Under the pieces are notes generated by a model, which worked only from the letters and a program-made list of their open reading frames with translations, ran no database searches and was not told where the DNA came from. Positions 1,300-44,217 of a DNA stretch of 64,000 nt are shown one piece after another; within the stretch, counting starts at the first letter, position 1; every line of letters begins with the position of its first letter. The position numbers were made by a program, and so were the translations under genes. Source of the stretch: Powellomyces hirtus (taxonomy: Eukaryota; Chytridiomycota; Chytridiomycetes; Spizellomycetales; Powellomycetaceae); NCBI GenBank assembly GCA_025526995.1, contig JAHLKG010000007.1, positions 992,001-1,056,000 of the forward strand, read 5' to 3'.

Positions 1300-4200
1300 T
1301 CACTCTAATTTAGCGTCCGGATCCGAATCATCGGGCAACACCACAACCGATCCCGCCCGACTGCCCCGTCTCAGCTTCTTGGCAAACACTTCCTCCGTAA
1401 GCGGAATAATCTTAACCCTGAAAAAAAAAAGAAAAAAAAACATCCCACAAGTCAAAACCCCACACAAAATCGTCAAAATACCCACGCCCACGTTTTACCT
1501 GAACGGCAACGGAACCTCAGTAACGGCTCTGAATTTTCCAATATTGTTAGTATGTTCGTTCTCCATCCGGATGATGCACCACACAAAGCGTCGAAAGAGC
1601 TCGAGGAGGGCCTGTAGGTAGACGAGGAGCCGGGCGTCTTTAAACAGGCCCCAGTTGTTGGGAGAGAGGAGAAAGACCCAGGAGAGACGCAATACGAAAT
1701 TCGTGCTATCGGGCGCAAAAAGGGCAAAAACGGAGCCGGGAATGTCAACATCAGCAACAACGATTCTTTGTTGTTTCATTCACTTTTTACTTACCCGATC
1801 GCACTCAAATACACCCACTTGGGATACACAATCACCTTCCTCAGATACTTATGTTTCGCTTTCGGCTGAAACAAGCCCCAATCAAACCACACGTCCCAAA
1901 AATACGAGTACATGGACGCAAGGATCGCAAAGGTGATCCAAAACCCGCGCGCGACGGGGCTGTTGGTGATACGGGCCGCGGCGGAAAGGAAGATGACGCA
2001 GAGGGAGAGACAGTATTTGAGAGCGTTGGAGAGGTGTGGGTGGGCAAGGCGGTTGTCGTAGTATCCTAGATGTGGGGAAATGGGGATGGTGAGGCGTGGG
2101 GTAGAAGGGTGATGGTCAGGAGAGGAGCGAGACTTACGTCGAAAACATTGTACGAGCCGCCAGAACGCGGGGATGGAGGTGATGACGGGAACCACCCAGG
2201 AAGTGCTGAAGCCGCAGTGTGCGTCTATTGTGATGAAGCGTCAGATGCCACCAACTGAGACACTTCATGAAATCGTGGTGATAGCAAAGGGACCCTACCC
2301 AAGTCTTCCAGATCGTTGATGGCTGAGCAGACAAGAATTTGGAACGAGACAAACATGTACGTCTAGCAAAGAAAGCACAATCGGTCAAGAATGATCTCAA
2401 AACCCGCCCCACGTGAATGGAACCACATTGCTTACCATGGAACTCAGGAGATCAGTGATAAAGAAATCACGGAACTGGACTTGGAAAAAGCCCGAAAATA
2501 TGATTCGGCCCTAAATGCAAAACGCATAAGATGGTCAGCCCTCAGTTCAAAAGCCTGCCGGTGCAAACTCATGATGTCCACATACCGCAGATCTTATGAA
2601 CCAGGAGCGGGACGAGCGATAAAAGATATTCAAGGGATTCAAAACGATTCCAACGATCGTCGAGAGTAGAATCTTGCATGGCGCGACACGTTACATCAAT
2701 GTCATAACACGAATTTTTGGGGACCCACTCACTGTTGGATACCACTTCAATGAAATGAACGACAGGAAGTTGTCGTCCAATGCCAGGTATAACGTATACG
2801 AGAAGAGGAAAAGGAGCACGGATGCAAATTCACTGAATCCTTCTGGTGGCAGGTAATCTGGGATAGGGAGCGTCAGCAAATACCATTCGACATGTGCAAG
2901 GCGATATGGGCGGAGACGGAGAATATCGCACCTCTTGGGTCGAGTTCGAAGACGAGGACCCAGTTAACGTGGTACTTGGCCCAAATGACCAGTAGCAGTG
3001 AGTAAAAGAACAGGAAGATGATGGGTATGCTGCGATATGTGCACGCAACGCGGTGTGAATGTGTGATGCTACAAATACGAAACATGAGAACGTCCCATAC
3101 CTCAGCCCTCCGAAGACTAGGAGAATCAGAGCGACATTGGGATTTGGAAAGCCGTCGCCAAAGACTTTCCGGAGAGTCAGGACGATGGCAGGAAAGGATA
3201 GTCCGATCAAGAACCCTGTTCGCCAGCTCACGACACCGTTGTCCTGATGCTAACGTGTTACACGCCATACCTCTCAGCCAGCTGAAACTGGTAACTACAT
3301 ACCTGAGACTTGAGGTCGGGTATTCGGAGGCTGCGCATGGCGTGTTGGCTGCGTCTGCGGTTTTAGATGGACGAATTCCGGTACAATACTTTTTTATATT
3401 TGGAGGGATTGAAACGTACCGATTTCCTCCAGCGAACACATTCGTAAACAGCGACTCTGTTTGCGACATCAGGTCCTCGATCTCGGTCGACATGAAGAGA
3501 TGCAAGCCTTTGGCTCGCGTGAGGTACCAATCTCCATTTGTGCCAGTGTTCTTTTCATTCTTTTTAAGAATCTTTGTCAGAGATGTCTGGTTTATGATTC
3601 GGAAGTTCTTCAGCAGCTCTAGCAGTCTGTAGTACTTGTAGATCACTGGCGTCAGCAGCACTCTGGAGGCAACGGGTGATGGTGTGCGAACCAATTACCT
3701 CCAAGAATGCTTTCTGCAGTCGATGCTTTGGGTTCTTGACTGTCGGTGCAAAGTGCTCCGCCTCATTTGCATCAAAGTCGTCTGGTACAATGATCTCCGT
3801 TTCTTCAATCAGGAATCGCTCATGCCGTCCTTCATTATCACCAAGAAATGTGCGTTTGTGATGCTGCTGATGCTGTTACGACCCATCAAAATGTTCAGCA
3901 GGCCACACAAGTGGGCTACACATTGTGAAGAGGTATGCATCCACACCTCTTGTCCAGAGGCTTCTCTCTGCACCATGATGTCGCATTGCCGGTGCAGATC
4001 CTTCAACCGGTTGACCGCATCTTTCTCTTTCACTGGTGATATTACTCAGTTTTGTGTGCGCGTGAAGTAAAAGACTCAGCGGAGGATGCCTCCCCGCTTA
4101 CATTTGTAGAAAGCATCTGCCTTATGAAGCTCATGATCCAGCTTCTTGAAGAATGCAATCTCTGCAGTGCTCAGCTGCGTTTCCTCCAAACTGAGCAAGA

Positions 4201-4549
4201 ACGCAACGTCGTCCTGAACGTGGTTGGTTTCAACCGTCGAGGATCGCGTATGCGTCGCTGGAACAGTCACATTCGTCGCGACGGCTATACCAGTAGCATT
4301 GGCACTGTCGGGTGTACTCGTCAAAGCTTCGGAAGAGCCTGCAAATATAATGATTGGTACACATTCTTGCTTGGAAAATACAAACATAGACCAACCTTCC
4401 AATGACTCTAAGGAACTGTGGAGGTTGGGTTGCGAACGTTGGCGGGCTTTTACGGCCTGCTTTATGAGTTTTTTGAGGATGCGATAATTGACATAGCGGG
4501 AACGCCACTCGGGCACGCTGTTTTCCGCTAGATACTTTGCAAACTTCAT
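1300..4549 (-). CDS. SPX-EXS phosphate exporter homolog (SYG1/XPR1 family)
   Basis: The family exports inorganic phosphate. Its SPX domain senses inositol pyrophosphates and its EXS domain forms the membrane part. The start is clear: MKFAKYLAENSVPEWRSRYV and then NYRILKKLIK are the canonical first SPX helix and its basic patch. A first intron (about 4340-4396) and a second ending just before the KEKDAVNRLKDL segment restore the frame. Downstream exons carry the SPX end, a linker before the membrane domain (RVLLTPVIYKYYRLLELLKN), membrane helices, the WDVWFDWGLF region and the EXS signature around RRFVWCIIRMENEHTNNIG near 1570. The last exon ends with an acidic tail and TGA at 1300-1302. There are many small exons and internal boundaries are approximate. 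It is a Golgi/plasma-membrane protein in relatives. Confidence 0.88.
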
Positions 4550-5496
4550 GTCATGTGTGTAAGCGTGCTGTCATTTTCTGCCTGGTCTTCCTCATTCTCA
4601 CTGTCAATAATCATGCCGTAAAATAATGCTTTGGGTCGGAGAGCGACGCGGGAGACACCCCATATTTAGCTCGTCGCCCATCCTTCGCTATGACGCAAGG
4701 GATCGGGAGGTTCCCAGTAGAGACCACTTCGTTTCTCTTCCGTTTAAGCTTCCAGGCATGGCCCATGACCGAAGGCCGGAAACGCTCACCTACGACGGAG
4801 AGCCATGGACGACTTCGACGGCGTAATACCACGGGGACGCGGCGAAGCCCCGGACAGCCCGCGACGCTGACGCAGCTGTTGGCGCAGATACTGCAAAGCG
4901 TTCTTGGATTCCTCCACCCCGGAGAATTCTACACCCTTTTTTGTCACGCCCCCAAGAGCTTCAAGGGATTCTCGAACGAACTACACCTCCCCTGAAGCGG
5001 TATTTGGGCGACAGCATAGAGCTAAATCATGATGATGGTGTAAACAGGAATCGTGGTTTGGTTGTAACCATGGAAGAATCCGAGTCAATGAGCTGATATA
5101 AAATGACCGCAAGGAGGTTCCCACCCCGGGAGCATTGACGCGGGTATTCCGAGGTCAGTACGTTGCGGCAACAGGGCCCGCACCCCACGATGCGGCTGCT
5201 CTTTCGCGTCCACCCAGAAAAGCAGCTGTTCCTGGACATTGAGCGACACACGCGCAGAGTCAATCCGCTCCCAATGACGTGAAGCGTTTTTCTCGCGGCA
5301 TACAGGAAGAACATATTGAAAATGCCGCCGTGGCCGACGAGTCCGTGGTGCTAACTGCGAGTCCGTAGACGTAGCTTATCTACTTATCCGCTGACCACTG
5401 CAACGACGAGACGTCCTCAGACACCAGCTGTATTGCTATTCCAAATAAAAAAGCCCCACATGCCCTTCAATCATTCAGCCTGCTTGCAATCCACTC
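4550..5496. other. intergenic, nothing convincing
   Basis: Only short overlapping frames occur on both strands, with no recognisable domain and no codon bias like the neighbours. It probably contains the promoter of the SPX-EXS gene and the 3' flank of the next minus-strand gene. Confidence 0.3.
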
Positions 5497-6077
5497 TCAA
5501 GTCCCCTTCTCCCATTCCCTCCGAGCTGTTCTGTCATGTACGTCGATCACCTTCTGCATCCACTCAGAGCGGCAAGGAAGAGACCGGAAGTATTCCGCGA
5601 TTGGCATGTCATATTCACCTTGCCAGTTATCTTCATCATCACTTTCTTCTTCATCATCTAGAGGCCAAAGTACATCCGGTGACCGCACAAGGTCCACTGT
5701 ATCAGAATGTCCTCTGTTCAAGAACTGCTCGTATTGCAAGACTCTCATGAGATCCCCCAACTTGATATTGACCACGGGCTCGAAGCTCTTCCAGCTTCTT
5801 TTCAGCCGCGGAACGTCTATGGTTGCACAAAGAGCCAAGTAGGTTTCCTATGGATGTATGGGCCGTTGCGGCCTTCGCCGTTAGACGTCACAAATGTGAG
5901 CGGCTCACCGAAAGCGGAGGGGGTTCTTTGCGACGTCGGCCGGCTGCACAGGAAGATACTTTGCCGATACTCTTCCGGTTGCCCGCTCATCCAGGCTTCA
6001 GGATCTTTGTCGAAGGTATTGGAAACACAGTCTACTCCACACGAGGTTTCCGTTTTGAAATTAACTCGAGTCACCAT
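5497..6077 (-). CDS. hypothetical protein, gene model incomplete
   Basis: Two minus-strand coding segments appear to be joined by an intron: an upstream one (about 6077 to 5905) and a downstream one (about 5850 to 5497). A good acceptor (CATAG) lies just before the downstream segment and a GTGAGC donor just after the upstream one, but the phase of this simple join does not match. The true donor or the start codon is therefore not resolved. The downstream segment has an acidic run (DDEEESDDEDNW) followed by a helical stretch and ends in TGA. I recognise no family. Confidence 0.3.
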
Positions 6078-6518
6078 CGACGCATGGTATTGGCTCTGCC
6101 AGACCCGGAACCGAAGGAAGACCCGAGGACGGTGCGGATGCAGGCCCGCTTATTGGTTGCTCTAGCCTGATCTTTACGACTTCCCCAATGCGGGGAAGCT
6201 GCCGTTGTTCTTAGGATTATGCATAGTTGCATGTCGTGTGGTGTTTAGTTGAGTGTCAAACGCTCCCAAGATAGTCACGTGAACTTATTTCCGTCACGCT
6301 GTGGCTTGGGCAGTGTGGCTAGTTTTGGCTCTATCTGGCAATACACGTGACCCTTACGATAGTCCAAGTCTGTTGTGGCCGCATTTGAGAGAGAAGGGGC
6401 ACGCTTTTTGGACGAGAAAAAACCCACGGCCCTCAGGTTGACGAGAAAACTGCCTGTTATCGTCCAAACATCCCAACCCCCATCAAAGGAAGGATAACTA
6501 TAAATCACAAGACCAACC
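6078..6518. other. divergent promoter region
   Basis: Non-coding sequence between the minus-strand hypothetical gene and the eIF4B-like gene. No distinctive motif was seen. Confidence 0.35.
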
Positions 6519-34440: not shown

Positions 34441-35480
34441 CCTACCGCATGCCGACTACCCCAACGCAGTCTGGTCGGCCTCACACATACGACGCGGCAA
34501 AGTCGCACATATCCACAGCGGATTGCCCCCCTCGGCCAGCTTCGACAGATATGGCCTGCCACCCAAATTTTGCTAACACTGGGGATTTCCCTCGTTGGCG
34601 GGCGTCCCCCGTTGGATTCGACAGGTATATACCTTGCACCCAATTTCCCCAACGAGATCCCAATCAATCCGATCAAGGTAGATGTACGAAGATCCAGTGT
34701 TCCCAACCATTGCCAAACCCCGACAACGCAGTCTGGTTGGCTTCATAAACAAATATTGAGATGCCGGCAGCCTGCACCCAACCCAAATTCCCTGATCTAG
34801 CAGCTTGCCCTCAGCCAGCTTCGACAGATATGGCCTGCCACCCAAATTTTGCTAACACTAGGGATTTCCCTCGTTGGCGGCGGCCCCCGCCGGATTCGAC
34901 AGGTATATCAATTTTCCTCAAAGAGATCCCATTCAATCAGATCAAGGTAGATGTACAAAGACCCAGTGTTCCCAACCATTGCCAAACCCCGACAACGCAG
35001 TCTGGTTGGCTTCATAAACAAATATTGAGATGCCGGCAGCCTGCATACCCAACCCAAATTCCCTGATCTAGCAGCTTGCCCTCGGCCAGCTTCGACAGAT
35101 ATGGCCTGCCACCCAAATTTTGCTAACACTGGGGATTTCCCTCGTTGGCGGCCCCCGCCGGAATCGACAGGTATTTACCCGGCACCCAATTTCCCCAAAG
35201 AGATCCCAATCAATTAGATCAAGGTAGATGTACGAAGATCCAGTGTTCCCAACCATTGCCAAACCCCGACAACGCAGTCTGGTTGGCTTCATAAACAAAT
35301 ATTGAGATGCCGGCAGCCTGCACACCCAAATTCCCTGATCTAGCAGAATTCCCCGCGTTGGAGGGCCCCACCAGACTCCACAAATATAGCCAGCACCGAT
35401 TGGCTGACACGGGGGTTTCACCTTGCGGCCTCGCCCGGATTCGACACATATGGCCAGCACCCAGTTTGCTAACACACGGG
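34441..35480. repeat. tandem repeat array, period about 262-277 bp
   Basis: The anchor CAACGCAGTCTGGT recurs at 34462, 34724, 34993 and 35270, giving periods of 262, 269 and 277 bases. Units also share GATATGGCCTGCCACCCAAA, GGGGATTTCCCTCGTTGGCG and a segment with AACAAATATTGAGATGCCGG. The first and last copies are divergent or partial. Long minus-strand open frames through the array are by-products of the repetition and show no recognisable domain. It may be a satellite or minisatellite; no terminal repeats or transposase were seen. Confidence 0.85.
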
Positions 35481-35702: not shown

Positions 35703-38424
35703 TTATCTGTGACGCCAACATCGCCCTCCTCCAGCAACGACCTGTCTGCAGGGCTTCCCGGATACTGTGTTCGTACTTCCACCTCTCCCAGGTTCAGGTA
35801 CGGGAGGTCCGTAATATCTGGGAGGAGGTGTAGGCGGGTTCGGATTGATCTGCCCGATTTGTACTAGAAGGTTCTGCATCTGCTGCTGATTGGGGTCAGA
35901 CTTGTTACGTCGCAATTCTTCAAGAGTGCGGCGCAACTCCTCGATGGTCTTCTGATGTTGTCTCTCCATCTCTCGAAATTTCTCCTTTGCAAATCGATTC
36001 TGCATCGCAAGAGGGCCCATCTATAATTAGCTCACAATAATCGCGGGGGGGGGGGGGGGGGGGGGGGCAATAGTGGGGTATACCTGAGCGTCAATTCTGT
36101 CCCAAAGCTCCTGCTCCTTTTTCTTTGCTTCAGCGTCCTGGACTGCGACAAGGAGGTCGTGATTTAGTTTTTGTTGCGTCTCTCGGAGCCGTGCATCTTC
36201 TGCCATTTCCTCTCGGAACGCTGCCATATCCTTTTCGTGCTTCTCTTTTGCAATTTCGGTGGCTAGAAGCTGCTGAGCCCTGAACGCCTCAAGGTTCTGT
36301 ATCGCCTTCTGTGTAGCCCTTTTCTGTTTCTCCAAGGTCTGGACTGTCCGAGCGTTTTTCCACTCGGCCTCGCGCGCCTTTATCATGACATCGGAAAGAT
36401 CAAAGCGGAGAGCCTGCGCAGTTTCTTCATGCTGCAGAATCTCCATTTTTTGATCGCGAACAAGGTCTCTCATGGGGCCGCGTGCTTCCGCGTTGTATTT
36501 GCGGCGATGAGCTCTTTGACCGCGATAGTGTATGCCTCAAATGTGGGATACTTCTTTCCCTCCACTTTAGCCTGATGAGGCTGGTAGAGGGTGTCCATGG
36601 TCTTTTCGCAGAATGCCTTGCTGGCTTTGACATTCCGTTCGCACAAGGAAGCATATTCGCCAGAAACAAGCTTCGCACCGCCTTCCTCGTAACTCGCAAG
36701 GGTTTTCTGTTTAACAAAAGATGGATGTTAAGTTCGGACCAATTACTGAATAAATTCGAACGCTGGGTTGCATCTCACCTGCAACTTTTGCAAGTATGCT
36801 GCAGACATAGCTCCAACGGCGAGCTCGTGGAATATCTTGACAGCAGTATCCTCATAAGACTTGTGGTGTTGCAGCAGACAGTCTGCCTCGATTGGCAATT
36901 CAGGTATCACAAAGGTTTCCATCGCGATCTTGTAGCTTCTGACAGCCTCATCCAGGGCGGCTTGACAAGATCGCTCAGACACGGCCTGCCAAGCATCGCC
37001 GATGCATGGGGCTTTCCCCTCATTGATGACTTTCAGATATACTTCTGCCAGAAGGACCAGATCTGCGTCATAAAAAAGAAAAAAAACTCAGTACTGAGTG
37101 TTGGTCATCGGCTTAACCAACTCTCGGTTACCTCTCCCAGTAATGGTCACTACATCCGTTGAGGTAGAAGAGATCATCGTTTTGACCGTCGCAAACTCAA
37201 AAACATGCTTTCTCAGAGCTACCATAGCTGTCCTATAGTCCGCTTTCAAGTCATTCCAAGCCGCCTTTTCCAAATTCAATAATTACTCTTCATCGCTCAT
37301 GGGACAAGGGAGTCTGCGTAAGGTGCGCTTCTTGAAGCAATTTCTGATCGTGCACCTTGTCTCGTCCATTCCCCTAGCAGTTGTGGTCGTACCTCCACTG
37401 CATCTCAGCACATACTCAAGCAATTCGTCTTCAGTCAAGTCCCTGTGTTCTGCGTCTTTCATGGACAGGAACGCATCGCGCAGCACCCAAATGAGACAAG
37501 GAGTATGCTGATCAATGTCCGCTCCAGTGTCAGCTTTCTTGCTTGTCGAAACCCTGATGTGATCTGACAAGTTTGACACAAATCTAAAGGCCGGTTTGGA
37601 ATGGAAACTACATGAGATATGTACCAGAATAGATTAAAATAAAACTCTTGTTAGACTTACGAGAGCTTTGCAAGATCATCGGTGTTGATGGTTGATCCCG
37701 TTGTGTTCATCATCAGACATGAACTGAGCAACATTCCAATGGTGAAAAGCTGCATCGAATATTCCGGACTTCTTTTTGCATCAGAAAGGCCTTCACAGTC
37801 CAGCAATAAGATGATCCTGTCGGGGTCCCTTTGCCTGAATGCCCACAACCAGAAGCCCCTGGTTTTGCCCACAGTCGTGCTCCCAAGATCAAATCCATCC
37901 TGGACGCCCGCCAGTTGATTCATTAAGAAGGACTTGCCGAAACGGTAAATGCCCATCACCGTGATCACAACGACCGGCAGAGAGATGCTTTTGAGTATCT
38001 TGATGCTTTCCTCGGTCATGATCCAATTGGGAGTAGATTGTTTCGGGACGGTGTTGATGATGAACTGTACAGGCGCTTCGTGTAGCTTTTCCAGCGTTGG
38101 TTCGCCTAGGGTCGAGGGAACACTTCCGGCATGATCAGATCTCGAAGGGAATTTGACACTCGGCTCCCGGTCATCGGAAGGATCGGGATTGGGGTAAAGC
38201 GGTGGTGCATCTGGCACATCTGAAAAAATATCCATTCTTGGAATATAATCATCAGGTGTGTACATCTCAGCCGTCTTTTGTATCCCATTCGTTTGTGTCG
38301 CAGAAACCGAGGGCACAACAGTCGTTTGTGTCCCGGATTCCGAGGGCTTGTTAGGGTTAACAAGATCAGGTTCGATAACCCCATTCCTGCGGCCCTTGCA
38401 ACAGGACGATGCTCCAGAACCCAT
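35703..38424 (-). CDS. guanylate-binding protein (GBP)-like large GTPase
   Basis: Dynamin-superfamily GTPase of the GBP type. ATG at 38422-38424 gives MGSGASSCCK, a dual myristoylation/palmitoylation signal. A disordered linker to about residue 110 precedes the G domain. P-loop GIYRFGKS is at 158-165, switch I region STTVGKTRGFWLW, and G3 DCEGLSD at about 209-215. The guanine-cap RD motif is in CLIWVLRDAF, followed by TEDELLEYVLR and IRNCFKKRTL, as in human GBP1. An in-frame TAA at about 37281 falls in a 54-base GT-AG intron. The helical C-terminal half spans 37200-35703, with long Glu/Lys-rich coiled coils and a Pro-rich tail. No CaaX box ends it (CWRHR). A C-tract of about 25 lies in the last intron. 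Six or more exons; boundaries partly approximate. Confidence 0.85.
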
Positions 38425-39156
38425 TTTGCTTTTTTGACACGAGCGCAATGATTTTGGGAGTGAGCAATCTGCCTGTTGCGGAGGTCAATGCGAGGGGCAT
38501 CCCGACTTTTATGATGTGGTGAGGCGCCCGAACAACGACTGAATAGGTATGTGCGGGTTGACGAACAATAGCAATGAGGCTCCAGAACAACGACTGAATA
38601 GGTATATGCGGCGGCTGACGAACGATAGCAATGAGGCGCTTAAACAATATGCAGCATCCTGTCTGAAAGAAGACGGACCAGGCGAATTCCCAGACACGAA
38701 GTTTGCGTAATGGCGAGAGAGTAATTCAACCTATTTGACAGGAGGGCTCACTTTTCGGCAGTACCCTGTAAGCACCTAGAATCTACAGACGGTGCCAGTT
38801 CTGAATGCAAGCCCAAAACTATGTAGCAAGTTTGCCTAGCCTACTGTAGAAGATGACATCGTGGGAGGAATGTGAGCATTGCGGATGGAGAATACTCCAA
38901 GGACTCAACCCAACGATATTCGGGACCCTCGCGAGACGTGGTCAAAGTTAGCGTACAGCGATGTACAGTACCATGATCCCCTTTGACCACTTTTCGGACT
39001 TAGAAGGGCCCCCCCCCCCCCCCGTGTGAGACCAAATTCCCACAAGTAAGACCAAATCCCTGAACATCAGGCCACTGCGTCGTACTGGGACAAATCCGCA
39101 CCGGGAATTCCATTTTTCCAAGCTCCGTAAGTGATGGGATTCCATATCAGCAAACA
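38425..39156. promoter_or_regulatory. bidirectional promoter (GBP-like / ART-like)
   Basis: Gap of 732 bases between head-to-head genes. It holds a two-copy tandem duplication (38520-38631) and a C14 tract near 39009-39023. No TATA box was identified. Confidence 0.45.
38520..38631. repeat. two-copy tandem duplication, unit 55-57 bp
   Basis: The units start TGAGGCGCCCGAACAACG (38520) and TGAGGCTCCAGAACAACG (38575). Both contain GACTGAATAGGTAT and end in TAGCAA. A third partial copy (TGAGGCGCT) follows at 38632. It lies about 100-200 bases upstream of the GBP-like start codon. Confidence 0.8.
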
Positions 39157-40301
39157 ATGTCTTCACATGAGGTCAATGTTCGATATCAGGTTGCTCGTCT
39201 CGGGAAAGCGCCCTTGACTGTCGTCGCTGACGGTGGCTGCCCGAGTACTTATCAACAAATACTGGAAAAAATTGCTGATGTGGCCACGGTTGAAGTTGAG
39301 GAACTGGACCTTGTGGTACTGTATTGTGCTAGCAGACACGAGGTCCAGTCGCACAAGAGAAATGATCGCACCCCATCGGATCGAGAATACTTCCAGTTTC
39401 TCGTATCATATAAAGGAGAATCGTGGACGGTGTACGTAGATCAAGTTCCCAAAGAAACGCTCAAGGCGCGGAACCTACGCATTCTTGGAAGATCACTGTT
39501 GTATCGGGGCATTGACAATCAGAAATATATTAAGGCTTTTCGGCATTTTTTTTGAAGATGTAAGTAATAAACACTTTCAGGATTGCTATAAACCTAACTG
39601 GCTCCTTCAAGATTGAAGGGTACTTGAATCCTCAAGGCCACGTCGACTACCTCCGAACTGCCTGCTCCGAGCAGACCGTCTGGCAAAAGGCAGGGAGTAT
39701 CTACGAGCCCCTAGCCGGGTGGATGGGCTTCGGTGTCGCTGTCGATATCAAAAAGGAAGAGGAGATCTTTCGTGACTGGCACGTGTGCTTTCATTGTACT
39801 TCAGTGGAAGCCATCAGATCCATTGTCACCCACCGCACCATGGCACTTCCTGGTAGGTTGTTTTCAATGGAAATCGCACCTCGAAATAAAACAATGACCA
39901 TTTGGTTTGTCGTGTGAGGGCTCAGGGGATATACTGCTCGATGGTACAGAACTGAGAATTCCGACGCATCACACCCAAGGGCAACGCTACGTTTTTACGT
40001 CCCCATGTCTTCAATACTGTGCCCACTACGGAACGGAGCGTGTTTGGGAGAACAAAACGGTCCGTCTAGCGCTTCAGTTGCGGGTGCAACCTGGTAATGT
40101 GACCTACACATTTTTCTGTGGATAGACATTGAAAGAGTTCACCTCCATATTTGATTTGTAGGTTCATACACTGTTCAAAAGGACACATTGAGACATAAGA
40201 CTTCGTATCACAGTCGTTTTCCACCCAACGAGATCGAATGGAAAACAAATATTCGGGGTGCTGTGGTTGTGACTCGCATTCTTATGAAAATCGTCGAGTA
40301 G
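39157..40301 (+). CDS. protein with C-terminal ADP-ribosyltransferase-like domain
   Basis: Exon 1 (from 39157) encodes an N-terminal alpha/beta domain of about 130 residues (VNVRYQVARLGK, EELDLVVLYCAS) that resembles a beta-grasp fold but is not assignable. After a 52-base intron ending near 39611, the second part has YLNPQGHVDYL and then HCTSVEAIRSIV. Two more introns lead to RYVFTSPCLQYCAHYG and PPNEIEWKTNIRGAVVVTRIL, with TAG at 40299-40301. The order His / Tyr-rich FTSP block / late Glu followed by a hydrophobic strand parallels the H-Y-E core of PARP-like transferases. I infer the fold; activity is not shown. Exon 1 runs through eight T residues (39546-39553) that put a TGA in frame. Seven T would make the frame continuous, so the gene is either broken or mis-assembled here. 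Confidence 0.6.
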
Positions 40302-42408: not shown

Positions 42409-44217
42409 ATGGTCAAGTTTCTCCGAGTCATCCTTGCTGCTTCCCTTCTGACGGCGGTCGCCGCTGCGCCTGTGGCCAAACAAGAGCTCACCTTTCCACA
42501 GCCGTTCCACCGCACCCCGGTCTTTGAATCATTTGGAAGCTCAGGGACCCCTGCGCCCGCTAACTTTGCGCGAACCTCTGGGGACGCAGACAAGGATGCC
42601 GCGTTAGCCTACATTGCTGGTCAAAGTGGCTTCAACACTGGCGACTTTGAGATCTCCAACGACTACATCGGCTCGAACGGATTGCGACACATCTACGTCA
42701 GGCGTGCCATCAGCGGTATCGCGGTCGCCAATCAAGTCGCGAACGTTGCCATTAATGACGGCAAGATCTTTTCTTTCGGCAGCAACCTCCCCGCCAAGAC
42801 AAGCTTCCGTGGTTCTGTCGAGGAACCAGCGAATGGATCCTCTGCCGCGGACGCCATCCAAATTGCCGAGCGGGCCTCGGGACTCAAGGCCAACCCGGAC
42901 ACCCTCGCCGTTCCATTTCAACGTTACATCGAGACGGCGGAAAATGAGCTGAAATACGTGTGGACCGTTCAAGTGAAGAGTGCTCCCGCGGACACAAAAC
43001 TTCAGTGGTATGAAGTGGACGTTGCCGTCGCTACCGGCGAGATCGTGCGGGCCACGAACTGGGTCAGAGAAGTCAAATACACTGCGATACCTCTGGCGTC
43101 ACAAACCTCGAAAGAAAACTACAGGATCGTGACTGAACCGCAAGACAAGAACGCTTCACCCAAGGGCTGGACAACGCCCGTTCAGGGTGTCACCGGGACA
43201 ATCGGAAACAACGCGGCGGCACGAACAAGCGCGGGGAAATTGCTCGCAGCGCTCAACAACGAACACTTTAACTCCATATACAACTTTGCGGCCGACCCGG
43301 TGGACCCCCGATATGCCTCAACAGGAAACGCATTCTATGTGGTGAACGCTATGCACGATGTTTTCTACCGGTATGGGTTCAACGAGAAGGCCGGCAACTT
43401 CCAGACCGACAACTTTGGAAAAGGTGGCGCAGGCAACGATGCGATCAAGATCACGCTGGGCTCCGATCAGACCGACAATGCCTTCTTCGCCACACCTCCT
43501 GACGGTTATGCCGGAGAAATGAGCCTCTACACGTTTACCCGTACCACGCCCAAACGCGACGCCGCTATGGAGAACGCGGTCATCATCCACGAGTATACCC
43601 ACGGGCTTTCGACTCGATTGACGGGAGGACCTGCGAACGTCAACTGTTTGGATGCACCGGAGGCTGGGGGTATGGGAGAGGGATGGGGCGATGTCCTTGC
43701 TATGCTTATTGCTCGGAAGGGTACTGACACCCGACAGACCGATTATGGTGTTGGCGCCTGGATCATGGGAACTCCGCGGGGCATCCGCTCCGAGCCATAC
43801 TCGACAGACATGACGCGCAACACCAAAAAGTACTCTACCATCGGCGCCAACATGGAGCCGCACGCGGTCGGTGAAGTCTGGGCGAGCATGTTGAACGAAG
43901 TCTACTGGAACCTGGTCGACACGCAAGGCTTCTCGGGCCGCATGGTAAACTCACCCGCGCCCAGCGAGCACAAGGGCGACGTGATGTTGATGTTTATCAT
44001 CTTGGACGCCATGGCATTGCAGCCGTGCAATCCGACATTCATCACCGCGCGGAACGCCATGTTCCAGGCTGACCAGGTCCGTTATGGGGGCAAGAACCGA
44101 TGTGCCATGTGGCGCGCGTTTGCCAAGCGAGGCTTGGGCGCGAATGCTGCGGCCCCCGTCGGCACGGCGTACAAGGATGACTTTGGTGTGCCTGTCGGTT
44201 GCGGGAAAAAAGCCTAG
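42409..44217 (+). CDS. fungalysin, secreted zinc metallopeptidase (family M36)
   Basis: Extracellular elastinolytic/keratinolytic-type protease. It is one exon of 602 codons. A signal peptide (MVKFLRVILAASLLTAVAAA) is followed by an FTP-type propeptide to about residue 220 and then the mature domain. The zinc-binding HEYTH is at residues 394-398 (His394, catalytic Glu395, His398). The third ligand, Glu424, is in GMGEGWGD. Length and motif spacing are normal for the family. Expanded fungalysin families are known in host- or detritus-degrading chytrids such as Batrachochytrium. The lack of introns contrasts with its neighbours. The frame is intact, so it is presumably functional. Confidence 0.95.
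   Translation: MVKFLRVILAASLLTAVAAAPVAKQELTFPQPFHRTPVFESFGSSGTPAPANFARTSGDADKDAALAYIAGQSGFNTGDFEISNDYIGSNGLRHIYVRRAISGIAVANQVANVAINDGKIFSFGSNLPAKTSFRGSVEEPANGSSAADAIQIAERASGLKANPDTLAVPFQRYIETAENELKYVWTVQVKSAPADTKLQWYEVDVAVATGEIVRATNWVREVKYTAIPLASQTSKENYRIVTEPQDKNASPKGWTTPVQGVTGTIGNNAAARTSAGKLLAALNNEHFNSIYNFAADPVDPRYASTGNAFYVVNAMHDVFYRYGFNEKAGNFQTDNFGKGGAGNDAIKITLGSDQTDNAFFATPPDGYAGEMSLYTFTRTTPKRDAAMENAVIIHEYTHGLSTRLTGGPANVNCLDAPEAGGMGEGWGDVLAMLIARKGTDTRQTDYGVGAWIMGTPRGIRSEPYSTDMTRNTKKYSTIGANMEPHAVGEVWASMLNEVYWNLVDTQGFSGRMVNSPAPSEHKGDVMLMFIILDAMALQPCNPTFITARNAMFQADQVRYGGKNRCAMWRAFAKRGLGANAAAPVGTAYKDDFGVPVGCGKKA

What the first reader, a model, noticed from the sequence alone, without database searches (positions are those of the whole stretch)
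35703..40301. Divergent pair: guanylate-binding-protein-like GTPase and ART-domain protein in an accessory island
A GBP-type GTPase (P-loop, G3 and RD cap all readable) sits head-to-head with a protein whose C-terminal half looks like an ADP-ribosyltransferase fold. They share a 732-base promoter and lie between a tandem repeat array and a decayed F-box gene, away from the housekeeping block. In animals GBPs are cell-autonomous immunity effectors, and ART domains are recurrent in conflict systems. A fungal two-gene defence module is a plausible, untested reading.
Basis: partly seen in the sequence, partly recalled or inferred. Interest (0 to 1): 0.8.

Follow-up and report, generated by a model that had tools for sequence, protein, structure and literature searches.

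The report
Disrupted chytrid GBP beside orphan gene
A chytrid fungus carries a relative of the animal immune GTPases called guanylate-binding proteins, but this copy is interrupted by a stop codon and a frame shift, and the uncharacterised gene beside it could not be shown to be an ADP-ribosyltransferase or a partner of it.

Summary
The window is from the chytrid Powellomyces hirtus: the 747-residue NCBI record 'guanylate-binding protein' maps here. The minus-strand gene (38424-35706) is a GBP-family gene: GTPase domain E 6e-29, GBP_C E 2e-18; best solved relatives GBP2, GBP1, GBP5. It is broken: in-frame TAA at 37285-37283 and a frame shift near 36504. The NCBI model bypasses both with a 183-nt and a 38-nt 'intron'; the 183 nt encode residues conserved with Geranomyces. 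The only other close GBP copy found in the genome is also broken. The plus-strand gene (39157-40301) is real: a 307-codon, four-exon model, found once, with one metagenomic relative (C-terminal 138 residues, 53% identity). It matched no Pfam, NCBIfam, PADLOC or PDB profile or sequence. H, Y and E come in an order that recalls ARTs, but comparison with PARPs is within decoys and the structure model is useless (pLDDT 33). The head-to-head arrangement and 732-bp gap are confirmed. The partner gene is not beside the other two GBP-like loci, and no relative's neighbourhood could be read. A defence module is unsupported. New point: both Powellomycetaceae GBPs begin with an N-myristoylation-type motif.

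The parts
37661..38424 (-). GBP gene exon 1: N-terminal MGSGASSCC acylation-like motif, P-loop, switch I, G3
   Evidence: Pfam GBP E 6.4e-29; PDB GBP2 E 4.8e-26 best; matches P0001 residues 1-255
37132..37583 (-). GBP gene exon 2: RD motif and last part of the GTPase domain, interrupted by an in-frame TAA
   Evidence: Pfam GBP E 2.8e-9 before the stop; alignment to Geranomyces P0002 runs on both sides of the stop
37283..37285 (-). in-frame stop codon TAA inside exon 2
   Evidence: the genome search reports 1 TAA inside the exon-2 match
36779..37062 (-). GBP gene exon 3: start of helical GBP_C domain
   Evidence: Pfam GBP_C E 1.8e-18
36504..36706 (-). GBP gene exon 4, first part, up to the frame shift (place of the shift approximate)
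   Evidence: GBP_C E 0.08, 12.7 bits, below cut-off; aligned to P0003 across the shift, weakly
36084..36503 (-). GBP gene exon 4, second part, in another frame: helical region
   Evidence: no Pfam family over cut-off
35706..36020 (-). GBP gene last exon, proline-rich tail, no CaaX box
   Evidence: matches P0001 residues 643-747
38425..39156 (.). 732-base divergent intergenic region; holds a 55-bp tandem duplication at 38520-38639 and a poly-C tract near 39010
39157..39500 (+). orphan gene exon 1 (junction with exon 2 uncertain; the frame stays open to a TGA at 39553-39555)
   Evidence: spliced model; aligned to P0005 from residue 44
39581..39852 (+). orphan gene exon 2, start of the conserved C-terminal domain (FHCTS)
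39926..40093 (+). orphan gene exon 3 (YVFTSPCLQYC)
40162..40301 (+). orphan gene exon 4 (NEIEW..VVVTRILMKIVE)
34529..35346 (.). tandem array, 277-bp unit, 3.0 copies; the own-genome search reported no match elsewhere except a 57-base partial copy just downstream (35419-35475)

Best explanation
The minus-strand gene is a chytrid guanylate-binding protein gene that has recently lost its frame. The intact ancestor most likely worked as other GBPs do: it bound and hydrolysed GTP, dimerised through the GTPase domain and assembled on a membrane, here held by an N-terminal myristoyl (and nearby cysteine acyl) group instead of the C-terminal CaaX prenyl group of some animal GBPs. In this assembly the frame stops after 354 codons, near the end of the GTPase domain, so at best a GTPase domain without its helical arm is made. 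The neighbour is a separate, conserved but uncharacterised gene whose C-terminal domain may be an ADP-ribosyltransferase-like enzyme of H-Y-E type. Their head-to-head placement is most simply chance. Shown: GBP membership, the two interruptions, reality of the second gene. Inferred: loss of function, acylation, membrane action, ART-like activity, chance adjacency.
For: GBP and GBP_C profiles over cut-off; GBP2, GBP1 and GBP5 best in PDB. TAA and frame shift seen in the DNA. The alignment to Geranomyces P0002 continues through the stop, with 14 of 15 residues identical in TIRN-FKKRTLRRLP shortly before it. P0001 maps to the window in 7 exact blocks covering its 747 residues, but skips 183 nt and 38 nt around the lesions. 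The other introns of my model are 63-77 nt. The second close GBP copy found in this genome (C26) has a TGA and a frame change and no GBP_C match. Orphan gene: relative P0005, E 2.8e-35, 53% identity over 99% of residues 170-307. MGSGAS and MGCGAS (Geranomyces) fit the N-myristoylation pattern (pattern recalled).
Against: No transcript data: the 183-nt intron has a GTATGT donor and could be used. The 38-nt stretch is only weakly similar to a relative (P0003), so its removal is less clearly wrong. An assembly error is possible for the shift. Two closely related N-termini are weak evidence for acylation. Chance adjacency was not measured against other gene pairs, and nothing here tests function.
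Confidence: 0.62

Rival explanations
1. The GBP gene is intact in the organism and the two interruptions are sequencing or assembly errors.
For: Only two interruptions in about 810 codons, with the GTPase motifs preserved. The orphan gene's possible interruption lies in a run of eight T, where indel errors are common.
Against: The nonsense codon leaves the frame unchanged on both sides, so it is not a single indel error; no base run longer than three lies in the 26 bases printed around the shift. A second GBP copy in the same genome is also broken. The fungalysin gene next door is open for 602 codons.
Confidence: 0.2
2. The spliced form in NCBI (747 aa) is real: P. hirtus makes a GBP lacking 61 residues at one place and about 13 at another.
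For: The record exists and keeps the rest of the frame; the donor GTATGT looks canonical. Pfam still finds GBP (121 bits) and GBP_C (70 bits) in it.
Against: The removed 183 nt encode residues well conserved with Geranomyces, 14 of 15 identical in one stretch. A 38-nt intron is out of line with the others (63-77 nt).
Confidence: 0.1
3. The two genes are a co-regulated defence module, GBP membrane effector or sensor plus ART-like effector.
For: Head-to-head with 732 bases between the starts; the orphan gene was found only once in the genome, here; conserved H, Y and E in an order that recalls H-Y-E ARTs (comparison recalled).
Against: No ART profile match. GBP disrupted. No orphan gene in the 10-kb stretches around the other two GBP-like loci. 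No orphan-gene relative named from Geranomyces, which has a GBP; this absence is weak, because one search also missed P0005.
Confidence: 0.07

Closest known systems
Guanylate-binding proteins (Pfam PF02263 + PF02841), e.g. GBP1, GBP2, GBP5
   Same: GTPase domain with GxxxxGKS, switch-I Thr, D-x-E-G, RD motif; helical C-terminal domain
   Different: G3 is DCEG here, not DTEG (recalled); N-terminal extension of about 130 residues with a myristoylation-type start; no CaaX end; frame interrupted
Guanylate-binding protein of Geranomyces variabilis (P0002, 469 aa)
   Same: 52% identity over 54% of the query; same MG-x-GAS start and domain order
   Different: no stop in the homologous stretch; its record ends where P. 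hirtus intron 3 begins, so the record itself may be cut by a read-in intron
PARP / H-Y-E ADP-ribosyltransferases
   Same: order of conserved H (FHCTS), Y (Y-x-F-x-SPCL-x-YC) and E (EIEW) followed by VVVTRI-x-MKI; judged by eye, from memory of the family
   Different: no Pfam PARP match; hhalign score 15.5 with two P. hirtus PARP sequences, exceeded by at least 6 of 30 decoys, and the aligned stretch does not pair these motifs; no usable structure
Orphan metagenomic protein P0005 (JGI, 920-base contig)
   Same: 53% identity over the last 138 residues, 45% in the whole alignment
   Different: lacks about 43 N-terminal residues; source organism unknown

Membership tests
Guanylate-binding protein | GBP-type GTPase domain (PF02263) | tested here: met
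   101.4 bits against cut-off 21.1 for exon 1
Guanylate-binding protein | GBP C-terminal helical domain (PF02841) | tested here: met
   67.4 bits against 24.3 for exon 3; exon 4 first part only 12.7 bits
Guanylate-binding protein | P-loop, switch-I Thr, G3, RD motif | tested here: met
   read; aligned with P0002
Guanylate-binding protein | uninterrupted reading frame | tested here: not met
   TAA and frame shift; so the locus is a GBP-family gene, not shown to be a working GBP
Guanylate-binding protein | C-terminal CaaX prenylation box (some members only; recalled) | tested here: not met
   tail ends GGGRCWRHR
ADP-ribosyltransferase | match to a known ART profile | tested here: not met
   Pfam at E<=1 for the spliced protein: 0; P0005 at E<=10: one unrelated hit below cut-off; PDB: 0 for the spliced protein and for the two-sequence profile, two unrelated hits at E 0.61 and 1.6 for P0005; hhalign against two P. 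hirtus PARP sequences within decoys
ADP-ribosyltransferase | ART fold | tested here: inconclusive
   AlphaFold2 mean pLDDT 32.8
ADP-ribosyltransferase | H-Y-E triad in order | tested here: inconclusive
   H, Y and E conserved in both known sequences, but equation with the triad is by eye
Two-gene defence module | repeated adjacency in relatives | not testable with these tools
   I found no way to read fungal relatives' contigs; within the genome 0 of 2 other GBP-like loci have the partner gene

The most novel reading that the evidence does not exclude
Chytrids carry membrane-anchored, N-acylated GBPs paired head-to-head with an undescribed enzyme family of H-Y-E type, forming a fungal cell-autonomous defence unit that P. 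hirtus is now losing.
Probability: 0.07. Interest if true: 0.75.

Novelty: new member of a known kind. Interest (0 to 1): 0.33.

Why it matters
GBPs are well studied in animals and lately in plants; in the searches I ran, the only fungal mention I saw was one EST-table line. A chytrid GBP with an N-terminal acylation motif would show another way to anchor this family to membranes, and its decay would show that the fungus can lose it. It also flags a public protein record (P0001) whose splice model seems to hide two lesions.

Tried and rejected
Tried without result for the orphan gene: Pfam, NCBIfam, PADLOC, PHROGs and PDB. Weak hits set aside: for P0005 an AP2 adaptin domain at E 0.013, two PDB chains at E 0.61 and 1.6 and a PHROG labelled 'toxin' at E 0.26. 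IMG/VR scans with the protein and with two alignments: 2, 56 and 56 pattern matches, 0 confirmed. Bacterial genome scan: 161 pattern matches, 0 confirmed. Phage records: one match at E 8. AlphaFold2 on P0005 with window exon pieces: pLDDT 33, not used for a fold search; in its alignment (A3) the end of the exon-1 piece was misplaced by the aligner. hhalign against PARP: the PARP profile held two sequences, one joined from two exons without the stretch between, so the test is weak.

Rejected: an F-box gene in 40.6-42.3 kb. Rejected as preferred model: the 53-nt intron 37659-37607 of the NCBI record, because it adds eight residues absent in Geranomyces. Left open: the orphan gene's exon 1/2 junction. 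The open model uses a donor GTATCG at 39501. But the skipped stretch reads NQKYIKAFR, similar to P0005 SQKYTKDLR (31 of 2000 shuffles score as high), and a better-looking donor GTAAGT lies at 39560, which would mean that the assembled frame is interrupted there; with that donor neither of the two acceptors tried kept the frame.
Full report
Where it is. The window lies at G000:C7:992001-1056000 of a 29.3-Mb, 60-contig genome. The protein P0001, named by its source 'guanylate-binding protein [Powellomyces hirtus]', sits on a contig of 1,202,767 bases, the length of C7, and its 747 residues map to this locus in seven exact blocks. The host is therefore the chytrid Powellomyces hirtus, Spizellomycetales. 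The GBP gene is thus already annotated. No annotated protein for the orphan gene turned up, but those searches see only proteins of 0.55 to 1.75 times the query's length that share short words with it, and one search missed the relative that one search found.

The GBP gene. Exons on the minus strand: 38424-37661, 37583-37132, 37062-36779, 36706-36084 (interrupted by the shift) and 36020-35706, with introns of 77, 69, 72 and 63 nt. Piece by piece, Pfam gives GBP 101 bits for exon 1, GBP 37 bits for exon 2 before the stop and GBP_C 67 bits for exon 3; exon 4's first part reaches 12.7 bits, below cut-off, and its second part nothing over cut-off. The best solved relatives of exon 1 are chains named GBP2, GBP1 and GBP5; exon 3 alone has none at E<=0.001. 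A database search with the read-through (X at both lesions) found 4 proteins at E<=0.001 among 7997 scored candidates: P0001 itself, Geranomyces variabilis P0002 (52% identity), and two unnamed sequences, P0003 and P0004.

It is broken. TAA lies in frame at 37285-37283, and near 36504 the homology moves to another frame. The alignment to P0002 passes straight through the stop, and the 15-residue stretch TIRN-FKKRTLRRLP before it has 14 identities. The NCBI model skips 183 nt (37414-37232) and 38 nt (36550-36513) around the lesions. The first removes residues well conserved with Geranomyces; the second removes a stretch that aligns with P0003 with few identities, so it is the weaker case. The nonsense codon is not a single indel error, and no run over three bases lies in the 26 bases printed around the shift. 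P0002 is itself only 469 aa and ends where P. hirtus intron 3 begins, so it does not prove a complete gene in Geranomyces.

Other GBP-like loci in the genome. PF02263 rings at three loci (5 matches) and PF02841 only here; the tool calls such counts lower bounds. The C26 copy, beside an NRPS gene, keeps the P-loop half and goes on in another frame with a TGA. The C14 locus is a distant GBP-type GTPase, open over 579 codons, downstream of a Het-C gene. Neither 10-kb stretch contains the orphan gene. So both close GBP copies that were found look broken.

N-terminus. P. hirtus MGSGASSCC and Geranomyces MGCGASHS both fit the N-myristoylation pattern as I recall it, and the P. hirtus tail has no CaaX box. 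Anchoring at the N-terminus is an inference from two related sequences.

The orphan gene. A four-exon model of 307 codons is open throughout (39157-39500, 39581-39852, 39926-40093, 40162-40301). It was found once in the genome. With the whole protein, none of 1793 candidates scored E<=10; with residues 170-307, one of 80 did: P0005, E 2.8e-35, 53% identity, 287 aa, from a 920-base JGI contig. The gene is therefore real and its C-terminal domain conserved. The exon 1/2 junction is uncertain and may hide a further interruption.

Is it an ART? Conserved H in FHCTS, Y in Y-x-F-x-SPCL-x-YC, and E in EIEW followed by VVVTRI-x-MKI come in the order of H-Y-E ARTs (the comparison is from memory). Against it: no profile match over a cut-off; hhalign with two P. 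hirtus PARP sequences scores 15.5, while at least 6 of 30 column-shuffled decoys score more, up to 18.7, and the aligned stretch does not pair the motifs; the structure model is without value. These tests have low power, since the alignment holds two sequences. The genome does have ordinary PARPs at three loci.

Setting. The tandem array (3.0 copies of 277 bp) is confirmed; the own-genome search reported no match elsewhere apart from a 57-base piece just downstream. No F-box was found in six ORFs between 40.6 and 42.3 kb. Fungalysin (M36) lies at 42409-44217, and TIP49, RING-finger, mitochondrial-carrier and ammonium-transporter genes are in the window too. GC3 is 0.55 for GBP, 0.52 for the orphan gene and 0.68 for fungalysin. 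Rfam at its gathering scores and ARAGORN found nothing in the window.

Literature. In the open library, 'guanylate-binding protein' with 'chytrid' and 'fungi' gave one paper: a 2006 EST survey of Blastocladiella emersonii, PMC1550239, of which I saw one passage, a table line 'similar to Interferon-induced guanylate-binding protein'. Searches for 'guanylate-binding' with Spizellomyces, with early-diverging fungi, or with heterokaryon incompatibility gave none. GBP with ADP-ribosyltransferase and fungi gave 3 listings that look unrelated; a broader GBP evolution search gave 68, of which I saw 20 listings. Of PMC9005921 I saw one passage, which says GBPs are widely distributed among eukaryotes; of PMC12489281, on plant GBPs, five passages; of PMC6500376, the one listing of a search on fungal and chytrid ARTs, one passage, not on ARTs of this kind. 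Fourteen papers naming P. hirtus were listed and not opened. Fungal GBPs are thus little described in what I searched, but not new.

Verdict. A genuine but disrupted chytrid GBP gene next to a conserved orphan gene. The adjacency is unexplained, and the defence reading is neither excluded nor supported.

Noticed in passing
L007 (G000:C14:408500-418499), 1781-3864 and 4495-6231: A Het-C heterokaryon-incompatibility homolog (Pfam E 2e-130) lies upstream, same strand, of a divergent GBP-type GTPase with an open 579-codon frame. A GBP-like GTPase beside an allorecognition-type gene in a chytrid may deserve its own look.
   Followed up: partly
L006 (G000:C26:411000-420999), 5077-5588: Second GBP copy, with a frame change and a TGA after the P-loop half, beside an NRPS gene whose C-terminal part carries ankyrin repeats.
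   Followed up: partly
window 37414-37232 and 36550-36513: The public protein P0001 uses two doubtful introns (183 and 38 nt) that bypass a stop codon and a frame shift.
   Followed up: yes
window 38520-38639: 55-bp tandem duplication (2.1 copies) and a nearby poly-C tract within the shared intergenic region.
   Followed up: no
window 36083-36021: An intron of the GBP gene holds a long run of C.
   Followed up: no
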